64,000 bases of DNA from Dysidea avara (lineage: Eukaryota > Porifera > Demospongiae > Dictyoceratida > Dysideidae), in assembly GCF_963678975.1 (NCBI RefSeq), contig NC_089274.1, forward strand, positions 33,351,790 to 33,415,789, given 5' to 3'. The notes under the pieces were generated by a model. It was given only the letters and a program-made list of their open reading frames with translations. It was not told where the DNA came from and did not search any database. Of this stretch, positions 17,440 through 64,000 are shown piece after piece. The stretch's first letter is position 1. Each line of letters starts with the position of its first letter. The translations under genes and the position numbers were made by a program.

Positions 17440-18957
17440 ATAGAGCATTCAGCTACGTTTATAACTTACTCCATTATAGAATTATATTACATTGCAAGAT
17501 ATTCTGTACGGAATTCAGCTACAAACAGTTAATCTGATAGACAATTCAGCTACATGTAAGTCACCCTGTAGAGAGTTCATCTAGAAACCAGTCACCCTGT
17601 AGAGAGATCAGCTAGAAGAAGTCACCTTGTAGAGAGTTCAGCTACAAAGAAACCATCATATAGAGAGTTCAGCTGCAAACAAATCACCTTGTAGAGAGTT
17701 CAGCTATGAACAGATCACCCTGTAGAGAGTTCAGCTACAAACAAATCACCCTGTAGAGAGATCAGCTAGAAGAAATGACCTTGTAGAGAGTTCAGCTACA
17801 AAGAAACCATCATGTAGAGAGCTCAGCTGCAAAAAAATCAATCACTCTGTAGAGAGTTCAGCTAGAAGAAGTCACCTTGTAGATAGTTCAGCTGCAAATA
17901 AATCACCCTGTAGAGAATTCAGCTACAAACAAATCACCCTCTAGAAAGATCAGCTAGAAGAAGTTACCTTGTAGAGAGTTCAGCTACAAAGAAACCACCT
18001 TGTAGAGAGTTCAGTTGCAAGCAAATCAGCCTGTAGAGACATCAGCTAGAAAAAAATAATCTGTTGAGAGTTCAGCTAGAAGAAGTCACATTGTAGAGAG
18101 TTCAGGTACAAAGAAACTACCATGTAGAGAATTCAGCTGCAAACAAATCACCCCGTAAAGAACTCAACTACAACAAATATGCCCTGTAAAAAGATCAGCT
18201 AGAAGAAGTTACCTTGTACAAAGTTCAGCTACAAAGAAACCACCCTGTAGATAGTTCAGCTGCAAACAAATCACCCAGTAGAAAGTTCAGCTATGAACAG
18301 ATCACCCTGTAGAGGGTTCAGTTAGAAACAAGTCATCCTGTAGAGAGATCAGCTAGAAGTATCACCTTGTAGAGAGTTCAGCTACAAACAAATCACCTGT
18401 ACAGAGTTCAGCTACAAACAAATCACCCTGTAGAGAGATCAGCTAAAAGAAGCCACCTTGTAGAGAGTTCAGCTATAAAGAAACCACCATGTAGAGAGTT
18501 CAGCTGCAAACAAATCACCTGTAGAGAGTTCAGCTAGAAACAAGTCACCCTGTAGAGAAAACAAGTCACCCTGTAGAGAGTTCAGCTAGAAGAAGTCACA
18601 TTGTAGAGAGTTCAGCTACAAAGAAACCACCGTGTAGATAGTTCAGCTGCAAACAAATCACCCAGTAGAAAGTTCAGCTATGACCAGATCATCCTGTAGA
18701 GAGTTCAGTTAGAAACAAGTCATCCTGTAGAGAGATCAGCTAGAAGTATCACCTTGTAGAGAGTTCAGCTACAAACAAATCACCTGTACAGAGTTCAGCT
18801 ACAAACAAATCACCCTGTAGATAGTTCAGCTGCAAACAAATCACCCTGTAGAGAACTCAGCTACCAACAAATCGCCCTGTAGAAAGATCAGCTAGAAGAA
18901 GTTACTTTGTAGGGAGTTCAGCTACAAACAAATCACCCTGTAGAGAGTTTCAAACAA
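17440..18957. repeat. Minisatellite, 31-bp unit, about 45 copies
   Basis: The unit is about 31 bp, typically CACCCTGTAGAGAGTTCAGC plus TACAAACAAAT, with variants of 29-31 bp. Variants alternate between AGCTACAAACAAATCACC and AGCTAGAAGAAGTCACC types, giving a higher-order pattern. The first recognisable unit-like sequence (CACCCTAATAGAGCATTCAG, about 17433) belongs to the end motif of the adjacent interspersed repeat. No long ORF crosses it. Confidence 0.92.
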
Positions 18958-27733: not shown

Positions 27734-30700
27734 CAGGGGGGGTCTTTGGGGTCTGGAGACCCTCCCTTCAGGATATATATATATATTATAGGCGCTTACT
27801 AATAAGCGCATAATGATAATTAATTAAGCGTTGGCTATTACTCACGTGCGATATGGCTGCAAAGCGTTACAGGAGTAGTGATGAGGCTAGCAACGCCGGT
27901 TCGTGGACGGATTTCTGAGACATTGCCAGTGACAAAGAGCCAATTTGCAACGTTATTTTACAAATACAACGTCCACGTGTACAAGGTTAGTTACAGCGCA
28001 ATGATGCCGACACGCAGCTGCACGCCAACTGAGCTACTGTGTGGCTTCGCCGCTAATTATATTTTTAAGGCTTCTATGAATTGCTAGATAATCCGCAAAA
28101 CTAATTTTACCGCATCATCGCGTATCATAGCTAATTGTAACTAGTAGTGCAATGTAGCTAGCTAGGTAATTTAAAACTTACAGCATAGTTATGTACTTTG
28201 TATTGTCACAGCACTGGTAGTGTTGATGACGAGCTCGAGGCTGATGACAGAACAATTTCTGATGATGATGTGATTGTGTTGGATTCAGAAGAGGAATCTT
28301 CACAGCAAGATGATCAGGCCATTGTACTGAGTGAGGAGAGCAATTCAGACAGAGTCGGAAAATGACCTAGAGGGGCATAACACTAGTAGCAATGATGGCG
28401 TTGCAGTTGACACCACCAGTCATCTATCATGGTCCACTCGGTCAGAGATTGCTAACAGCAGTGATCTTCCCACTTGTGATGCCCAACAGTCTGCTAGTGC
28501 TGGTAATGACCAGACTCAATTAGCTATTCAGGATGCAATAAGTAGTGGGGATTTTGGAAAGATTGCACAATTAAAATTTCGAATCAATCTCGCAGATCAA
28601 TAAAAATATTTTCTATTGAAAAGGTATTATGTTCTTTCTATCAACTACAAATTTCTCACTCATGTGATTAACAAGATTCATCGACATTTCCAACACAGAT
28701 GGCTAGAGAAAAATCCTGGCTTGGTATATTCTGAGTCAGAAAGTGGAAGATACTGTAAGTATTGTGTTCTATTTGGTAAGACCGAGCCAACTGTGAAGGA
28801 ACTTGGTGTTTTTGTAACCAGGCCCTTCACTAATTTTAAAAAAGCCACGGAGCTATTGGGGAAGCATTTTCGTGGCCTTGGAAATTCCAAAGGAAACAAA
28901 ACTCATCAAAATGCAGTACAAGATGCAAATATGTTTGTTAGAAGTATGGAAAACATTGATGCAAGAATAGATTTCCAACTAAACACCGCAAACATCAAGA
29001 CACCAGCTGAGAACAGACTGAAGCTCCGATCAGTAGCAGAGACAGTATTTTTTTGTGGAAGGCAAGGCCTTGCTTTTCGTGGTCACTGCGATGATAGACC
29101 TTTTGTTGAAGAAAACCCAAACAACTATCATGGTAATTTCTTGGTTTGCTCAAGTTTCGTGTACAGGCTGGTGATAAAGTTCTTTCAAATCATCTTGAAT
29201 CTGCTGCTGGCAATGCTATATACACCAGTAAAACTATTCAAAATGATCTCATTTCAATTTGTGGTGACCTAATTCGTAACAAAATTTTAGAGAAGATTCG
29301 TCACGCATGTTATTTTTCTGTCCTAGCAGATGAAGCTACAGATGTGGCCAATGATGAGCAGCTATCAATTAGCATCTGCTATGTTGATGAAGGATCTCCA
29401 ACAGAAGTGTTTATGGGATTTCATAAATGTGTCTCGGGGGTTACTGGACAAGCAATTGCCAATGACATAGTTTCACAACTATAAAAATGGCAATTGCAGT
29501 TGCAATTTCTTCGTGGTCAAGCATACGATGGAGCTGGAGCTATGGCTGGGAAATCTAAAGGTGCAGCTGCTTGTATAACCGCAAAACACCCTAAAGCATT
29601 GTACACTCACTGTGCTTCACACAGACTAAATCTCTGTGATGCCAAATCTTGCACTATCAGAGAAATCAGCAATATGATGCAGTCAGCTGATAAAGTATCA
29701 CGATTTTTTAGCAATTCTCCAAAAAGGCAGTTGGCTTTGGAGAAGTGGATTGACAATCTGTTTTCCAATGAAAAGCGTAGGAAGATAAAGGAGATGTGTC
29801 GTACTCGCTGGATTGAGCGACATGAGGCTTTTGAAAGTTTTGTGGATTTATTTATGCCAATAGTATGCTGCTTGGAGGAAATAGCCAACAGTTCTCCAGC
29901 AGAATGGAATGCTGAAACCAGATCAGATGTCCAGTCACTGTTTTTTACAGTGTTCAGATTTTCATTTGTCATAGCTTTGGTGGCTACACAGAATGTGCTG
30001 TCATACATCAAAGGGCTATCCGTGAAACTTCAAGGTCACTATGTCGATGCAATTCGGGCTCACAGAGATATTCAGAATGTGAAATTCACTTTGGTTAAGC
30101 ATAGGTGTGATGTGGAGAGATATCATTCACAAATATACAATGAAGTTACAGTATTATGTCAGAGTGTCGGAATTGAAGAATCGGTACCAAGAGTTACTAA
30201 CAGACAGCAAAACAGGCAAAACCTTCCATCCGATAGTCCCAGTGAGTATTATAAGCGCACAACAACAATTCCTATGCTAGATCACCTGATCATTGAACTA
30301 AATGTTCGGTTTACAGAGTCTTCATCTCAATTTCTCTTACAGTTGCTCAACTTTTACCATCAGAACTAATTAAAAACCTCACAAAGACCAAGAATTCAGA
30401 TTTTGATGAGTTAATAAAGTTTTATGAAGATGATTTACCTCTATCTAGGGGCTTTTCTGCAGAATTAGAGTTATGGAAAAACTACTGGTCGTCAAAAACA
30501 TGTAAAGCTGATGCAGAAGCCTTAAACACCCCTGAGAAGGCATTAAAACAGCTTTACAAGGATTTGTATCCTAACATTTATACGTTGTTGACATTCGCTG
30601 CCACTGTTCCAGTCACTAGCTGTGAATGTGAAAGATCCATCAGTATGCCCCGATTAATCAAAACTTCTTTAAGGAGTACTATGACACAAGAAAGACTAAA

Positions 30701-31128
30701 TGGGCTAGCAATGATGCAGTATCATCATCAAATTCCACTTGAGGCTGATGAAGTAGTTGAGGAGTTTGCCACTCGACAGCCAAGGAAACTTCTGTTGTAA
30801 TTTACCTGCATGGGGACAATTCAAATGACATAGTAGTAATCCACTAGGCTGTAGCTACCTATAATTGTACATAACAATAACATAATAATACAGTCAATAG
30901 ACATTCAATCAAAGTACATTAGTATAATATATGGATCTTTGATGTGTACTCATACCAGGCCATAAATTTGTGTCAAATTGCATCAAATTCAATCTCAGAG
31001 GGTTGAATTTTCAAATTTTTCCTGGGGGGGCATGCCCCCAGACCCCCCTAGAATGTTCGTGCTTCGCACACTGTGCAGTGACTTTTACCTTTAGACCCCC
31101 CCTTCTAAAAATCCTGGATCCACCCCTG
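27734..31128 (+). mobile_element. hAT superfamily DNA transposon, 3.4 kb
   Basis: The left end is CAGGGGGGGG and the right end, read inward, is CAGGGGTGGATCCAGG. The flanks ACGTC (27729-27733) and ACGGC (31129-31133) are a likely 5-bp target duplication with one change. The element encodes a broken hAT transposase on the + strand. Its right subterminal region recurs as remnants at 9258, 51360 and 55975. Confidence 0.8.
27853..30800 (+). pseudogene. hAT transposase (TTF-type zinc finger, DUF4371, hAT C-terminal dimerisation), broken
   Basis: A first short exon (ATG about 27853, MAAKRYRSSDEASNAG) and an acidic segment (28210-28600) precede the core. Next come a TTF-like finger with YCKYCVLFGKT (about 28755), PFTNFKKA, and the RNase-H-like core with DEATDVANDEQ (about 29331), YDGAGAMAGKSKG (about 29525), YTHCASHRLNL and TRWIERHEAF. 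The C-terminal dimerisation region is at 30564-30760 (VTSCECERSISMPRLIKTSL). The reading frame is broken by a stop near 28600, a frameshift near 29145, a TAA at 29482-29484 and a frameshift near 30340. It is too damaged to act; relatives could move its ends. Confidence 0.88.
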
Positions 31129-37009: not shown

Positions 37010-39600
37010 CCGGTTTTTTTTTGTTTTGTTTTTTTCCCGGGCTTGATGGACTGCCCTTTCCTACCACCCCCAGCACAGATTGCAAGTGCTGGACAACTGA
37101 ACAAAATTAAGCAGACAAATGGGATTCCACAGTCACTAAGTCCACTGACTGGAGTCCTGGTGTAAACACCAATAGAAGACCGTGCCCCACAAATACACTG
37201 AATTGCCGAGCGCAACAACGCAGCCAACCCAGAACCACAGAATAATCATCTCCCCACTTTGTGGCCAGAAGAGAAGCAAGTCGCTTATAAAAAACAGTAG
37301 CCTCATGGGCTAAACCACCAGTGGCAGCCAAAACAATTGGAGTGAAAGTGGCATGCTCCACTTCTCGAACCCGCTGACCATAAGCACAATGCTTAATCTT
37401 TTCATGCTTCCTAAAGGTGGACGACAGAGAGGAGGAACTATTAGAAGGAGCAAAAGGGTTAAAAACACGGACATCAATGAAACATCTCTCCGAACGACCA
37501 CCCCAGAAACCGTTTACAACAACATCCAAGCGAGCCGAATCCTGAGTATTAGAGGTGGCAAGAGGGAACTCATCAGAATGCTGAACTGGCTGTAACTCTG
37601 GCTCAACACACACCTGGGAGCAAACCTCAGTAAGAAGGGTAGCAGTAAGGTCCCTAATCTCGTTATGACGCAAGGAAGGTAAACCCCCTTTGGGACAGGA
37701 CAAAGCATGCTCAACAGAAGAGGAGGTTCCGCAAGCACAAAGGGAAGGAGGATGAAGTGGGGACCAACCATACCTCAAAGCCAAAGCATCCTGGAAAGCA
37801 GATCTATGGAGAGTGAAACCATGCTCACTCAAAGGTAAGGTGGTGAGCCAGCTTGAAGCACCTCTAACAGTAGCCAAGTCCATCGCACGCCTCAAGGAAG
37901 GCCCAAGTTGTTGGTATAGCTCAGCAAATTGTGTAGAACAGTGTTCAGATTTGGCTTTCCTTAAAAGGGCCTTTCTGGCCTGCTGAGAGGCAACAGCCTC
38001 AACAAAACTCAAATCATGATTCAATATACATTGGCTAAGAGGTTCCGTGACATCACGGGATGCAGCCAACTTACTAACACATCTTCTTGTGGGGACAAAA
38101 ATACCCAGGCCTCCCCACCGAGCAGGACGGGCAAACAGGAGCCGTGAACTATCACTGAGCGGTGAACAACCAGTTAAAGTAGGAATAAATACTTGGCGAA
38201 TCATATCTTCAAGTGGCTGAAAAGCATCACACACACAAGGAACTGTTCGAAAAACAAACAGCCAACGACTGGATAGACCATGGGTGAAGGCACAGTATGC
38301 AGCATGGGGCTGACTCTCCGCAAATCTTGATAACCTCTTAACCTCTGCAGACCAGCCCTTAACCTTCTCAACAACAAAACTATTCACATAACTATCAGAC
38401 CCAATAGCAGCCCCCAAATAAGGGCGGCCCTCCATAGATATTCTAATTCCAGAACCACTGAAGACTGAAGCAGCATCCTGCTGCAAATGTCCCTTGATGA
38501 TAAGCCAAGTTTTGGTCGCGTTAACAAAGTACCCAAACGAAGGGCCAATTTCGGCACACAGACAGTCCCACCACTTACGCAAAACAGTCAACTTTCCACA
38601 AGCACAAGCGTCATCAGCATACCAAACCTGCTCCACTCCCGAAGGGAGACACCTCAGAAGTGGAATTGTGGCCAAAGCATAAAAGGACATGGCCAACGGA
38701 TCCCCTTGGGTAGTTCCCTCTTCCGACAGTATTACATCACCTGAAATGAATAAACTAGCTGGAGACCGGTAAATATTAATCAAGATTGGAGCAAAGGGTG
38801 TGCAGAGCTATCTAATGTTGTGTAAAGCAACTATCCTGTTCAACGAGTTAAAAGCATTACTTGCATCCACAAGTAAAACAGCATCACAATCCTCATTACC
38901 AAAAAGCTCACGTACTGAATGAACAGCAGCCTCCACACCCACCATTTGACTGGCACACATTTGCAGAGGACCAGCCACAATCTGGATGTCCTCTCTGATA
39001 ACGGAAAGGACTGCCTTGGCCACAATTCTCCTCACAACTTCACAAACTCCAATAGGCCTCATTCCTGGCCTCTTGTCTAAAGCAATCAACCTACAAGCCA
39101 CAAAAGGGGAAAGAATTTCTGGGGAGATAAATGAAGTACAGATACGTCTAGCAAACAAAGCCAAAGCAGCACACAACTCACTTGAAGCTGAGTGGAAACC
39201 AGTGCAGAGACGTCTCCAACAGCGAGCATCCACACCAGATGGACCAGCCGCACCCGTGGTCCGGAGTGCAGCAGAACGAATGACACAGCCATCTAAAGGG
39301 TCAAATATTACAGGATGGATGACAGGTGGATTAGTCCAATCAGGCAGTAAACAGTTCACATGTAAAGGCTGTGCAGAAGGATGCTTAGACTTAAGGACAT
39401 CTCTAACTGAATAAGTTGTGGAATCAACAACAACATTGTCATTCAAATTCAGAACTCCTCCATGTCCCTGTTCATCCAATAGCTGGAGGGCAGCCTGTTG
39501 TGCCATATTGGCTTGATTGAGATCCGTTGTGCCATGCTAATTGACCCTTTAGATGGATGAATTGCTAATTGTGCCTTCACCATATCCCTTATTCTGCACA
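37010..39600 (-). mobile_element. Non-LTR retrotransposon, near complete 3' part
   Basis: The element reads on the minus strand. The ORF is followed by a short 3' UTR with GCACTTGCAATCTGTGCTGG and CCATCAAGCCCGGG and then an A-rich tail (T-rich on + at 37013-37037). The same 3' end is seen as a stub at 16923. No N-terminal ORF or 5' end was recognised upstream of about 39600, so it may be 5'-truncated. Confidence 0.75.
37107..39506 (-). pseudogene. Reverse transcriptase with C-terminal zinc motif and putative nuclease; one in-frame stop
   Basis: The ORF begins ATG at 39506 and has a single in-frame TAG at 38808-38810; otherwise about 800 codons are open. The N-terminal half has GPSGVDARCWRRL, LIALDKRPGMRPIGV and VLLVDASNAFNSLNR (catalytic Asp A). 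After the stop come GTTQGDPLAM and VWYADDACACG (catalytic YADD), then the thumb. The C-terminal part has CACGTSSSVEHALSC (a CCHC-like knuckle), SLRHNEIRD and SARLDVVVN..ERCFIDVRVFNPFA. That resembles the PD-(D/E)XK restriction-like endonuclease arrangement of RLE-type LINEs (R2/NeSL-like). The nuclease assignment is inference. With one nonsense mutation only, the copy is young or selected relatives exist. Confidence 0.85.
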
Positions 39601-50093: not shown

Positions 50094-50637
<544 letters not shown>

Positions 50638-57960: not shown

Positions 57961-58096
57961 CGCATGAAAATGTTTGAAATACCTATAAGTATATTTCATG
58001 GGCATGAAATTGATGAAATCCAGTGAAATACACATGAAATAAAACCATGAAAAAAATCATGACTGAAAATAATCATTTCATAGGGTTTTCACTTCA
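57960..58096. repeat. ATGAAAT-rich palindrome arm (left flank of the helicase transposon)
   Basis: GCATGAAAATGTTTGAAATACC and TTTCATGGGCATGAAAT are mirrored, in reverse complement, on the other side of the transposon at about 63600-63665 (CCCATGAAATTTGTGGTATTTCAAG..TTTTCATGG). The transposon therefore lies inside an older inverted repeat. Confidence 0.65.
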
Positions 58097-58161
58097 TAGT
58101 CTCGCGTACCAGACGGTTTGTGTGGGGGTGGTAAATAAACCGTCTGGTCACTGTTGCACAC
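58097..58161 (+). repeat. Left terminal inverted repeat with internal hairpin
   Basis: Within the repeat, CCAGACGGTTT (58109-58119) and AAACCGTCTGG (58137-58147) form a perfect 11-bp stem with a 17-base loop. Confidence 0.92.
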
Positions 58162-58252
58162 TTTCCGTGATCACCAGGAATGCAATTAAGTGCTGGTCAC
58201 TGTAAAGCGCTAATAACAATAAATTGCTGGAATCTAATCGAATTGCATCATT

Positions 58253-61200
58253 TTGGCGCGTTTGAAATGGCAGTTGTGTGCTAAATCCCTACGAGCAGAT
58301 CAGAGGCGACGGTTAGATCGACTTCAAGAAGTAGCTGAAACTTTATTAAAGCTTTGCCTCAACAGTTCAACCTTGCCCAAAATCTTTTCCAGCCCAGACT
58401 CTTTCCTTTGTAAGCCTTGTGTTAGAAAAGTGGAGAACTTGAAAAGGCTAGAGGACGATTTATCAAAAACGAAATCAACCATTAAGTACCACCTGGATAT
58501 GCTGAAAGAAAGACTTGGAATAAAGTACTTACAAAGTTATTTGTTTTTAATTTGTATGCCATAGTATGCATGCCTTACCATATTAGCCAGATGCCCATCT
58601 CTGGATGCACTGGTAGTTACAGTCTAGCTACAAATATGTAATGTTCTGTTTATAGCAATGAAGAAGCTGATATTGGTATGCACAGTTCCTCGAGCTTAAC
58701 ACCTCAAAGGAAATGATCAGCAACCACTGCAGGCTTGCAATGTGGACTAGAAACACCAAAGAGACGATGTCAATTGGACTCACCAATGCGACGTAAGATT
58801 GCTACAATTCAGCCCTCAGATACTTCTCCAGCTGTGGCGGTAAGTAATGATTTTGACTATTACACAGTCCTTGAATTGACTACATCAGGTATTGGTTAAA
58901 AGTGCAAAACGCACTCGCTGTCAGGTTATGACAAAGAAATCAGGATTCAAAAGGATTGCCAGAAGTCTAACCAAAAAAAAGCCAATCAGTATGGCCAAAC
59001 ATTTATTAAAGTATGTCAGAATTCGACAGAGGGTGCTATACTTGCTGGTAAAACAAATACAGTGTGAAATGTCTGTGTTGTGTGCTAAGAAGAGTAATTC
59101 AATGTTAAGAGAAACATCAATAGAAGAATTGGAAAAATTCAGCTGGAATAGTCTGTCAGAAGAGGTTAAGAGTGTTGCTCCAACCTTTTATACAATCTTG
59201 AAAGGATGTACAGAAGTGAAACGTAAGAAAAGAAATATACAGAGAAAAAGCAACTGTGTGTCTGATGTTGCTGTGTTTGGTGTTTGTACTGGTGCTCTAT
59301 TACGACACCGGAAAATTCACATGAATGCTCTTCAACGTATTATCTCCTTAGTGTTACACAGTGGTCACAGTGGAAAACAGGTATAAACTGTGGTAATAGT
59401 ATTGTAAATGTGTATTGTTGTATTAAATGTCAAGTATTTTGCTTTTCCCTTCACTAAGGTTTATGACAGGCTTCAAAAACTGCTTCTGTGCTTATCGCGG
59501 TATCGTACTTTAATCTACCTTGATCACGTTGGTGAAACATTTGACAAGGAAGTCGTTGAATGGAAAGAGACTGTTGTAAACTCTATGGTTGCTTCTGAGG
59601 TAATTACAACGTCACTATACACATTTGTTGTATCTGAAGATATTTTTAGAATGAACAACCTGCATTTGAGGCTCTTGATGCATTTAACAGTGCTCATTTA
59701 AAGGAAACTACTGATGAGACAATCCCAAACAACACACAATACATTGATGATGAATCCAGTCATGATGTGGAAACTGATGAAACAGACACATCTTATCAAT
59801 CCACACCTCCATGCTCACCAACAAGGTTTACTGAAAGTACAATATGTAGTCCAGGTGTATCAGTGTTAACTGAAACAAGTTGCTGCAGTGATGATGAAGA
59901 TGGGTTTCCCAATGATGAGTCCACCTCCCAACAAAGTATCAGTGTGTTGTCACCTAAAAAGATCCCATATAAACTGGTTGGAGACAACATTGATAAGAAC
60001 ATTACCCCAAGAGACATGCGATCGGATCATCAAACACGTTCATTTCATTTTTTTCACACATATGCTGTCAGACCTTAGTGGATTTAGTGAGAGTTGTGAG
60101 AAGGCTGAAGTGTTTATCGCTGATAAACTATTACCATCACAAAATGACAAGAAAGAAATCATTGAAAACTATACACAGTTATTTATTCGTGTTTTGATGA
60201 AGCATATCCCGTATTTTAAGAAACTTGGAAAAGGAATGGCAAGACACATTATGCATGAATATTATGCTGAGATGTCTCAAAGATCAGAAGTGGTACGGAT
60301 GTTTTGTTTGCATGCATTATATGCATAGTTTATAATTTATTGAATAGGTACCTCTTGGAATTGAACTAAAGTCAGAGCAACATTTGGATGAAATGGTTGA
60401 CATCTTATCATCTTTGCATAAATATTGTCAACCGTGACAACAGAAAAAGTTTTTGTTGAGGGAGAAGAGGATGAAATAGTTCATGATGAGTTCTCAAAAG
60501 TATTACTAGATATGATATCGTAGAATCAATAATTAATATTACCTCCGCATTCATATTTTTGCTGGGGTCATTCACAACATTCCTCCATTGTATTAAATTT
60601 CTTAACTGATACAATGTATCACCATTGCCACCTGAAGAACACTTGTACAATCTTTTCCAGATTACCTGCACACAACAGTGAGATGGGTCTACACTATAAC
60701 ACACATATACTCTTACACCCAAAAATGACATTTTAGCATGCCAATATTCAGTAACACCAACAAGACCACCAAGACAATCGATTTCCCTCTCAGAATTACT
60801 GCAAATACCCTTTCACCCTTGCACAAGTCATTTGATCTCCACCTGCCATTAGATAATGGTGACAAAAATTAAAATACCATATCAAACATACTTATGATAA
60901 CCATTAGAATTATAATGTTTATTTTTGTGTACTGTGCGTGTGAAGATTTTTTTACACTTATTGTTGAAGCACACATCCTTGCAGCTGCTATGTCAGCATT
61001 TGAAATGTCGTCTGTAGATGACATACCAGTCAGTGTCCTATTCAGTAATGACCGTTGTTCCCTCAACAAAGATGACAGGCACACCATACTACAACTTGAA
61101 GTTACCAATGTAGTTGAAAAGTACGTACGTAATTAATCATGATAATGCATTAGATTCATTTTACCACACATATGTAGATCTAAACTATGGTGAAGATACA

Positions 61201-61853
61201 GAGAGACCAGAAGACAGGGACAAAATTTTCTCATATGCCTGCAAGGTGTTAACACTGGGTTTATTGTATCTAGAGTTTGTAGATGCCATTCGGGAGGCTG
61301 ATGGCACACGTATCCTATGATGCTAGAAGTTTTTTTTACTTTACTTCAAAGTCAGTGGAAGGACTAATTATTCTATTGAGGCATTTGTATTGTTAGCCCA
61401 AGAGAAATACCTATTCTCTCCTCGCATGGCCATGCAACTAGGACTGTAAATATGCATGGTCTGCCAGGAAGAAACGTCTCATGTGATCTCTACATGGAAC
61501 ATCTCAATAGAGAATGCAAGAACTGTTTGTCTGGGCTTGGCTCGAACATTGCTGATTCATCAGTTACACGCATTAGAAAGTGTATTGGGAAAACAGAAAA
61601 GGTTTTAAGGAATTTTGATAGGAATAATAATTTACCACAATAAAGTGGTTCTCACACAACAAAGTCATCTAGAGAAGATATGAAGAAATTGCTACTTCAG
61701 TTGACAGAAAAATCAAAGGTATTTATTATGAATGAAGGACGATCACACAAAAACTTTTCATACTTTAAATTAAACATGCTTCGTCAGTTAGACGTTACAG
61801 CATTAAAACAGTGGATGTCAGAACAAATGCAAAAGTTGAACACATACACCTGA
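58253..61853 (+). pseudogene. Academ-like transposase (DUF6589), multi-exon, broken and partly inverted
   Basis: Inferred exons with GT-AG borders: about 58253-58524 (FLCKPCVRKVENLK, a CxxC pair; no in-frame ATG), 58656-58839 (in-frame TGA at 58714), 58889-59380 (ALLRHRKIHMNALQRIISLV), 59459-59599, 59650-60292 (GDNIDKNITPRDMRSDHQTR with the first likely catalytic Asp; frameshift near 60065), 60348 to about 60513 (frameshift near 60425; VFVEGEEDEIVHDEF). The next two exons lie on the minus strand (60842-60717 with GGDQMTCARVKG; 60665-60543 with LYQLRNLIQWRNVVNDPSKN). The + strand resumes at about 60945 (FFTLIVEAHILAAAMSAFEM) and 61178-61853 (MHGLPGRNVSCDLYMEHLNR with a likely catalytic Glu). 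Stops at about 61318, 61324 and 61641 and a frameshift near 61446 complete the damage. Confidence 0.82.
60514..60900 (-). other. Inverted internal segment of the transposase gene
   Basis: Two exons with correct splice borders and the family order (GGDQ exon, then the RNLIQWRNVV exon) read on the minus strand between plus-strand exons of the same gene. The segment must therefore have been flipped as a block. TATGATA occurs near both breakpoints (about 60519 and 60893). Confidence 0.75.
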
Positions 61854-62057
61854 TGGATACCGATACTGTGTTATTACATAAAAAAGTGGTACAATCACTA
61901 CAGTTACAAATTAACTCACACACATCACAACACTTGCACAAAATTACTTTATCGTCAGATTTTAGACCTACTTCATCAAAATGTTGCATCAATAGATTTC
62001 TCTTACATTCAGTTTTGTTAGCAGTATACGACTTCTGTTCATTGATTCTTCAACGTG

Positions 62058-63369
62058 TTAAACCCCAGAAATATTGTACAGAGTGGCAGTAGCTGGTAGG
62101 CCATCTCTACCACCCCGACCTGTTTCCTGTAAATACATTTCAATGTCTGACGGGGAGCCCCAGTGAATAATATACCTCACATTTGGACAATCAATACCCA
62201 TACCGAATGCCACTGTTGCAATCACTATACGCAACTTAGACTGGAGGTTACAGAATCCTTGTATGATCTTTTCTTTCACTGTGGGGTGTGTACATGATGT
62301 AAACATATCAACCATTCGATATTTAGCTTTGTCTGGAGCTCCTATGGGATCTGTAAACTCCTCTTGTAACCTGCTTTTTATGTACAGATAAACCTCACTA
62401 CACCCTCCTGTAGTATTATCATGTGTCCTACAAAATATAATTGTTCTTTCTGTGTTTGTTCTCTTCAATTTCAATTTTTCAACTAATGGTGCAAATACTT
62501 CTTCAAGTGGTCCTGGTTTCTGGATCACAGTATATTTTACATTTGGCTTATTGGGTGAAACAGCAACGATGCTGACATTCCTCATACTTAGTATTTTGCA
62601 AATATCTCGACGAGATTTGGTGGTGGCAGTTGCAGTCAATGCCATGATGTGCACATACTCTGGAATCAAACTGTGAACTTCTCCCAAGTTTGCAAACTCA
62701 GTTCGAAAATTAGCTCCCCTACATAATAAGCAAATAACATTGGCTATATTTTAGTACATATTACTATAGTATTAAACATATTATATGTGTGCATCGTTTA
62801 ACCATAATGTATCTACAGCTATGCAAAACCCACTGTACTTATTCATGATGACCCATCAAGTATGCAGTACTGCTGATACATGGTAGCTACGTACCACTTC
62901 TTAACACAATGGGCTTCATCTACTACAAATGCAACCAGCCTCTGCTGGTACACAGGACCGGCTTTGCAGCATGTCTCTCCAAGTTGAATCTTTATTCTGG
63001 GCTCATGTAAACTAATTGATACTCTCTTTCGCACACTTTTCTTATTTCCTCATCACTGTTGGCACCTCCAACATACACTGCAGTTAGGTTCCTTTCCATC
63101 ATTGCTCTCACTTGATCCTTCATTAGACATATTAAAGGGCTCACAACAATAGCTACTGACTGGTGCAGTTGTTCAGGCCGCATCACACCAAAAGCTCGGG
63201 GAAGAATTGAATAACAGAGCGACTTTCCACTGCCTGTAGGTAAAGCAACAAAAACATCTCATCCTCTAATAAATTCTGAAATCGCTTCTAACTGCTTTGG
63301 CCTAAGTTCTCTATAACCAATGGTATTCACAACTTTGGTTAGAATTGCTTGTAATCGAGAATCACCCAT
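62058..63369 (-). pseudogene. RecQ-type superfamily II DNA helicase of the transposon, broken
   Basis: Start ATG at 63369. Order on the minus strand: zero-motif-like GYRELRPKQLEAI, Walker A ALPTGSGKSLCYS (63240), motif Ia SPLICLMKDQV, DEAH box VVDEAHCVKKW, then an intron (62894-62719, GT-AG) joined in frame to GANFRTEF. Motif III is [10 protein letters not shown] is TIIFCRT, V is [18 protein letters not shown] and VI is [10 protein letters not shown]. The frame ends at TAA 62058-62060. There is no RQC zinc or HRDC domain, so it is a core helicase only. Damage: TGA at 63259-63261 (RG*DV, explicable by CGA to TGA) and two frame changes between about 63010 and 62950. All catalytic motifs remain legible. 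A cellular RecQ is unlikely because the gene sits within the transposon's terminal repeats. Confidence 0.88.
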
Positions 63370-63526
63370 TTTCTGGCACAAGAACAGTGCAGTGCAATTC
63401 GTGTAGCTAATTTGTCATTGTTCACAATAAGTATGTAAAAAATTCATATTTGATAATTTGTTTCGTCATTAAGTGCGCGAAGCGATTTGATTGGCTCTGC
63501 CAACATTCCGGCAGTGGTCCCAGAAT

Positions 63527-63589
63527 GTGTGCAACAGTGACCAGACGGTTTATTTACCGCCCTCACAAACCGTCTGGCACGCGAGACTA
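63527..63589 (-). repeat. Right terminal inverted repeat with internal hairpin
   Basis: CCAGACGGTTT (63541-63551) and AAACCGTCTGG (63567-63577) form the same 11-bp stem with a 15-base loop. The outer end is GCGAGACTA. Confidence 0.92.
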
Positions 63590-63593
63590 TTCA

Positions 63594-64000
63594 CTTCATT
63601 GGTAAGGTTAAATTTCATCAGTAGGCATCCCATGAAATTTGTGGTATTTCAAGTCTTTTCATGGTGTTTCTATAATGGTAAATTCTCCACTAGCTCCATT
63701 TTCCATCTATCAAAAATAATTTCAAATATAGTAGCGTATTTATAAATACCGTGGACAGGTCTAGGAGGACTCTGAGGACGACTCACTTCACTTGGGAGTG
63801 ACCTGTAGTGAGTGCCGTGACGAGTGTATTGCGAAGAAATACTGTAAGTAATGTGACAGTGTATATTTATTGAGGTGAATACAATGTCAGGCGGATTTTC
63901 CGATCCGTCCTCGATCAGTTGGAATATACGGAACCTAGCTACCTAAAATTAGGGAAAAGCGCTCGTAGGATTAGAAACAGCATCTCTAGGATTAGGCCAC
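63594..64000. other. Right flank of the helicase transposon; no gene seen
   Basis: The first 70 bases mirror the left flank (ATGAAA-rich palindrome arm). Beyond 63730 I see no coding sequence. GTAGGATTAGAAACAGC and CTAGGATTAGGCC near 63968-63998 resemble the GGATTACGAACAACGCC.. words at about 43610, so another dispersed repeat may start here. Confidence 0.4.

What the first reader, a model, noticed from the sequence alone, without database searches (positions are those of the whole stretch)
58097..63589. A complete-ended DNA transposon pairing an Academ-type transposase with a RecQ-like helicase
Seen directly: 65/63-bp TIRs, a TTCA duplication, a + strand transposase with DUF6589-like blocks and a - strand helicase with motifs I-VI. 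The architecture fits the AcademH lineage (known from memory). The convergent opposite-strand arrangement with an intron in each gene, and the host lineage, may be new. A helicase as an accessory transposition protein outside Helitrons is rare.
Basis: partly seen in the sequence, partly recalled or inferred. Interest (0 to 1): 0.82.

Follow-up and report, generated by a model that had tools for sequence, protein, structure and literature searches.

The report
Decayed helicase-carrying Academ transposon (AcademH)
This is a worn-out copy of a known kind of jumping gene (AcademH) that carries its own DNA-unwinding enzyme next to its transposase; the same genome holds many relatives, one family of them so alike that it probably jumped recently.

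Summary
Window 58097-63589 is a two-ended DNA transposon with a + strand DUF6589 transposase and a - strand RecQ-like helicase, tail to tail. Its target-site duplication is 9 bp (TTCACTTCA), not TTCA; 22 of 25 two-ended copies examined show an exact 9-bp duplication. Kojima gives 9-10 bp for AcademH, 3-4 bp for AcademX (passage). This copy is dead: both genes have broken frames, and about 393 bp of the transposase gene is inverted relative to sister copies. The helicase is no passenger: 88 of 95 DUF6589 loci found in the genome have a RecQ-like helicase in the same convergent order, and the two proteins' distances correlate over nine families. In one sister family nine copies have identical 120-bp ends and exact 9-bp (eight) or 10-bp (one) duplications; seven of them are 99.7-99.9% identical to an eighth over the stretch compared. 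New member of a known kind. Host unnamed; the primary AcademH paper was not held; DUF6589 = Academ is recalled.

The parts
58088..58096 (.). left target-site duplication TTCACTTCA (9 bp)
58097..58174 (+). left TIR, begins TAGTCTCGCG; holds a subterminal palindrome at 58108-58148 (12-bp stem)
58238..61853 (+). transposase gene (DUF6589), several exons, broken by stops, frame breaks and an inversion; cysteine pairs near the N-terminus (about 58270-58520) look like a zinc finger (label recalled)
58840..58888 (+). possible GT-AG intron of the transposase (placed by eye)
59381..59458 (+). GT-AG intron of the transposase; joined frame stays open
59600..59649 (+). GT-AG intron of the transposase; joined frame stays open
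60293..60347 (+). possible GT-AG intron of the transposase (placed by eye)
60546..60938 (-). internal inversion: transposase segment reversed relative to sister copies A and C; the - strand reads the peptide with TLYQLRN (frame 60408-60812), and GGDQMT can be read by eye from the letters at about 60825-60845
61121..61177 (+). possible GT-AG intron of the transposase (placed by eye)
61882..63369 (-). RecQ-like helicase gene, two exons, with DEAD, Helicase_C and a C-terminal cysteine cluster; in-frame stop before motif I and a frame break before motif II; limits set by hand from the frames and from sister copy A
62719..62894 (-). GT-AG intron of the helicase (176 bp, placed by eye)
63514..63589 (-). 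right TIR, ends CGCGAGACTA; subterminal palindrome at 63541-63577 (11-bp stem)
63590..63598 (.). right target-site duplication TTCACTTCA (9 bp)

Best explanation
A dead copy of an AcademH DNA transposon. Inferred life cycle: the DUF6589 transposase binds the TAGTCT... ends, cuts the element out and inserts it at a staggered cut of 9 (rarely 10) bp; the element's own RecQ-like helicase, made from the opposite strand, works in the same reaction, either opening DNA at the ends or the target or unwinding during the repair that follows. Shown: ends, duplications, multiplicity, association and co-divergence of the two genes, decay of this copy. Inferred: recent activity of a sister family (from near-identity), cut-and-paste chemistry, catalytic residues, and every step given to the helicase. 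Since losing its genes the window copy could have moved only in trans, as the roughly 540-bp gene-less copies with the same ends must.
For: TIRs and exact 9-bp duplication in 22 of 25 two-ended copies, and in copies A and B by their flanks; 401 TIR starts against 0 in the control; DUF6589, DEAD, Helicase_C in sister copy A and in other families, RecQ_Zn_bind in two other families under its cut-off; recQ_fam E 4.6e-41 for the window exon, 141 bits under the whole-protein cut-off of 219.8; 88 of 95 DUF6589 loci convergent with a helicase match; correlated distances, Mantel r 0.70, reached by 1 of 20000 permutations; nine two-ended copies of a sister family with 9- or 10-bp duplications; AcademH 9-10 bp against AcademX 3-4 bp (passage in PMC10045372).
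Against: No reference Academ sequence was compared. 43 of 133 helicase loci have no DUF6589 match within 3 kb; host RecQ genes and decayed copies among them were not told apart. Three DUF6589 loci have the nearest helicase match on the same strand and four have none within 3 kb. No empty site or excision trace was examined. L010 shows no duplication; L007 has one and L023 three mismatches. Both genome tallies are lower bounds, since only the best candidates were scored.
Confidence: 0.9

Rival explanations
1. An AcademX-type element without helicase dependence; the helicase is a host gene captured by this copy.
For: DUF6589 is shared; one DUF6589 locus (L073) is a single frame of over 1616 aa with no helicase match within 3 kb.
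Against: Duplications are 9-10 bp, not 3-4; the helicase lies in the same place in many families, with distances that follow the transposase.
Confidence: 0.03
2. KolobokH or another superfamily that carries a DEAD/Helicase_C helicase.
For: KolobokH is named beside AcademH as a source of these domains (passages in PMC10799480).
Against: The transposase matches DUF6589, and the duplications are 9 bp of mixed sequence; Kolobok's TTAA target is recalled.
Confidence: 0.02
3. The helicase serves the repair after excision or insertion (gap repair, copying from the sister chromatid) and does not set the stagger.
For: RecQ helicases act in recombination repair (established knowledge). Micro-elements of 64-86 bp made of little beyond the two TIR arms, with differing junctions in the five found by pattern, look like internal deletions of the kind that interrupted gap repair or palindrome processing could leave (inference).
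Against: Does not explain why helicase-bearing and nuclease-bearing Academ lineages differ in duplication length.
Confidence: 0.4
4. The helicase is a passenger kept only by linkage.
For: It is a separate gene on the other strand and could ride along.
Against: Across nine families it is at least as conserved as the transposase part compared: pN 0.376 against 0.439 with pS saturated; 33 invariant columns (206-214 codons compared) against 20 (136-167 codons).
Confidence: 0.05

Closest known systems
AcademH (Kojima 2020, Mob DNA 11:15; seen only as a citation and in a passage of a later paper)
   Same: Helicase plus transposase in one element; 9 or 10 bp duplications; found in animals and fungi (title)
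   Different: Not comparable in detail: gene order, introns and end sequences of the published families were not seen
AcademX
   Same: Academ superfamily (by the recalled equation of DUF6589 with Academ)
   Different: Nuclease in place of helicase and 3 or 4 bp duplications; here 9-10 bp
KolobokH
   Same: DEAD and Helicase_C helicase carried by a DNA transposon
   Different: Transposase here is DUF6589, duplication 9 bp of mixed sequence
RecQ helicases
   Same: Window exon matches RecQ 4tmu (E 7.2e-30; bacterial, recalled) and WRN (best E 2.6e-25), and recQ_fam (E 4.6e-41)
   Different: Short protein with a C-terminal cysteine cluster, carried by a transposon

Membership tests
AcademH | 9 or 10 bp target-site duplication | tested here: met
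   22 of 25 exact 9 bp; sister family: eight of nine 9 bp, one of nine 10 bp
AcademH | DEAD/Helicase_C helicase inside the same TIR element | tested here: met
   window, copy A, sister family
AcademH | transposase of the Academ superfamily | tested here: inconclusive
   DUF6589 match; DUF6589 = Academ is recalled, no Academ reference compared
AcademH | place in an Academ transposase tree | not testable with these tools
   no collection of eukaryotic transposases at hand
AcademH | DDD/E RNase-H-like catalytic fold | not tested
   structure prediction was not called: its stated rule does not list loci taken from whole genomes, and the window gene is broken
AcademX | 3 or 4 bp duplication | tested here: not met
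RecQ helicase family | RecQ-type helicase core | tested here: met
   (recQ_fam scores below the whole-protein cut-off for these partial proteins)
RecQ helicase family | RecQ zinc-binding region | tested here: inconclusive
   RecQ_Zn_bind 1.7e-4 and 6.2e-3 in two sister families, both under the cut-off
KolobokH | TTAA duplication (recalled) | tested here: not met
   9-bp duplications of mixed sequence

The most novel reading that the evidence does not exclude
In AcademH the RecQ-like helicase is an obligate part of the transposition machine that sets the 9-10 bp stagger, kept in a conserved tail-to-tail gene pair; and this genome holds a family so recently active that the claim can be tested directly.
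Probability: 0.3. Interest if true: 0.7.

Novelty: new member of a known kind. Interest (0 to 1): 0.42.

Why it matters
Why some DNA transposons carry a helicase is open. Here a large natural set of helicase-transposase pairs shows that the two genes stay together and diverge together, and a near-identical family offers material to ask what the helicase does and whether it fixes the length of the target duplication.

Tried and rejected
Covariation of the subterminal palindrome arms between nine families: not significant (5669 of 100000 permutations reach the observed total). The longest perfect stem in the first 90 bases was rare among 200 shuffles (0 to 6) in 8 of 10 ends, and ordinary in L037 (183) and L032 (165).

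Target-site preference in 37 duplications (22, 2, 8, 5): not significant (188 of 2000 null sets reach the observed information).

Micro-elements as mobile units: set aside, because the five found by pattern all have different junctions, which fits separate internal deletions.

Nuclease domain in L073: no Pfam or solved-structure support. Print: no paper with DUF6589; seven papers matched AcademH-like terms, of which I saw passages of two (PMC10045372, PMC10799480) and only the listing of the rest; one search found no paper with Academ, helicase, sponge and transposon; one search listed 15 of 717, one of which holds the word Academ (once, not opened). The primary paper is not held.
Full report
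What is in the window. The element spans 58097-63589 (5493 bp). On the + strand DUF6589 matches 61380-61643 (E 1.4e-7) and 61114-61320 (E 5.1e-4); on the - strand Helicase_C matches in 62058-62750 (E 4.9e-14) and DEAD in 62992-63258 (E 4.7e-10). The two genes end tail to tail roughly 30 bp apart (by hand, from the frames and sister copy A).

The copy is dead. Frames of both genes are broken by stops and shifts. About 393 bp (60546-60938) lie reversed compared with sister copies C (L009) and A (L059+L030). In copy A this stretch reads on the coding strand through GGDQMT, DWHAKM and TLYQLRN; in the window the part with TLYQLRN appears on the - strand (frame 60408-60812), and GGDQMT can be read by eye there from the letters. 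Copy B (L031+L060) keeps a 64-bp piece of it in the sister orientation beside a deletion. Over their corresponding pieces A, B and C are 92.2-96.9% identical to the window element. The helicase stretches of A, B and C contain stops, and that of C is partial; no intact member of this family was seen among these four.

Multiplicity. The first TIR search listed 41 places (40 of 491 candidates scored); I examined 26 elements from it and left 14 places unfetched. Of the 26, 25 have both ends (the window, L004-L008, L010-L028; L009 has one end). 22 of the 25 have an exact 9-bp duplication, L007 has one mismatch, L023 three, and L010 none. Copies A and B carry CCCCAGACC and TCACATGTC at both ends (letters). 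A 26-base TIR start is found 401 times (208 + 193) at up to two mismatches, and 0 times in the reversed control. Only 100 of the 401 places were listed; among these I counted 30 adjacent facing pairs: 22 of 534-574 bp, one of 841, one of 2729 and six of 64-86 bp. The 540-bp class that I aligned shares only about 93 bp at one end and about 135 bp at the other with the window element, so I read these as gene-less MITEs.

The helicase belongs to the element. The window helicase exon has 152 matches in the genome (150 listed; 150 of 283 candidates scored), and DUF6589 has 111 (102 of 249 candidates scored; none in 14 control genomes); both are lower bounds. Merging neighbours gives 133 helicase loci and 95 DUF6589 loci. 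Of the 95, 88 have a helicase match within 3 kb in convergent order, three have the nearest one on the same strand (all on C15; one of these helicases is also counted convergent with another DUF6589 match), and four have none. Of the 133 helicase loci, 43 have no DUF6589 match within 3 kb; these include the window itself, whose DUF6589 pieces are not in the list, and L058, where weaker transposase similarity is present; the rest were not sorted into host genes and decayed copies. In direct comparison of the 29 best-scoring loci besides the window (L030-L058), 28 show transposase similarity in convergent order. The 29th, L046, has its DUF6589 match further off, in a copy 1.1 kb longer than its sisters.

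They diverge together. I sorted the 29 loci into ten groups by eye; one locus each of nine was compared, L058 being left out for lack of a match to the transposase part used. Helicase and transposase distances correlate with r 0.70, reached by 1 of 20000 permutations. Over the 36 pairs the helicase is at least as conserved as the transposase part (pN 0.376 against 0.439; pS 0.78 and 0.81, saturated).

A probably recent family. Seven copies are 99.7-99.9% identical to an eighth, L042, over 2.0-3.0 kb of the helicase half. Nine copies have both ends, all eighteen ends identical over the 120 bp searched. All nine have exact duplications, eight of 9 bp and one of 10 bp; lengths run from 4877 to 6914 bp, five of them 5802 or 5803. 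The ninth copy (C6) was not compared along its length; its helicase match is 43% against 45% for the others, with three stops noted in its frame, and it is the one with 10 bp. Recent movement is inferred from near-identity. The duplications fit the published statement that AcademH makes 9 or 10 bp and AcademX 3 or 4 (passage in the Discussion of PMC10045372), where the author links the difference to helicase against nuclease. Other families begin TAGTCTCGTC, TAGTCTGGCG or similar; at the boundaries printed no such start is seen in L039, L052, L055 and L057.

How it probably works. Cut-and-paste by a DDD/E-type transposase is inferred from family knowledge and from TIRs, duplications and gene-less copies. 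The helicase's step is unknown. Two readings stand: it opens ends or target during strand transfer and so shapes the stagger, or it serves the repair that follows. The ends of all nine families examined hold a GTCTGG motif within the first 90 bases, and 8 of 10 ends hold an unusually long perfect stem, but the test for covariation of the arms was not significant, so I do not claim a hairpin. Six micro-elements of 64-86 bp consist of little beyond the two TIR arms; five of the six have exact 9-bp duplications, L077 has none. A whole-genome pattern with at most 17 bp between the anchors finds five, three of them among those six, all with different junctions, so they look like separate internal deletions.

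Comparison and novelty. Filing as AcademH rests on duplication length, helicase and DUF6589. That DUF6589 is the Academ transposase is recalled; no paper in the library holds the term, and no Academ sequence was at hand. PMC10799480 (passages) names DEAD and Helicase_C among the domains of AcademH and KolobokH. The primary paper was not held, so I cannot say whether the tail-to-tail order or a recently active family has been described.

Noticed in passing
L074-L079 (C1, C3, C4), 64-86 bp each: Micro-elements made of little beyond the two TIR arms, five of six with an exact 9-bp duplication; the five found by a whole-genome pattern, three of them among these, have differing junctions.
   Followed up: partly
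L073:1152-5999 (+): Single open frame of over 1616 aa with DUF6589 at residues 705-1005 and no helicase match within 3 kb; possibly an AcademX-type protein, nuclease domain not confirmed.
   Followed up: partly
C15:10611439-10613671, C15:1511626-1513259, C15:10842307-10844191 of the window's genome: The three DUF6589 loci whose nearest helicase match is on the same strand all lie on C15.
   Followed up: no
window 17514-18949: Minisatellite of about 47 units of 31 bp.
   Followed up: no
window 50095-50637: 543 bp of perfect CCTG tetranucleotide repeat.
   Followed up: no
window 37107-39536 (-): Two adjacent long frames (566 and 242 aa) with a YADD motif, read by eye as a retrotransposon reverse transcriptase.
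   Followed up: no
window 28604-30800 (+): Frames that look by eye like a hAT-type transposase remnant.
   Followed up: no
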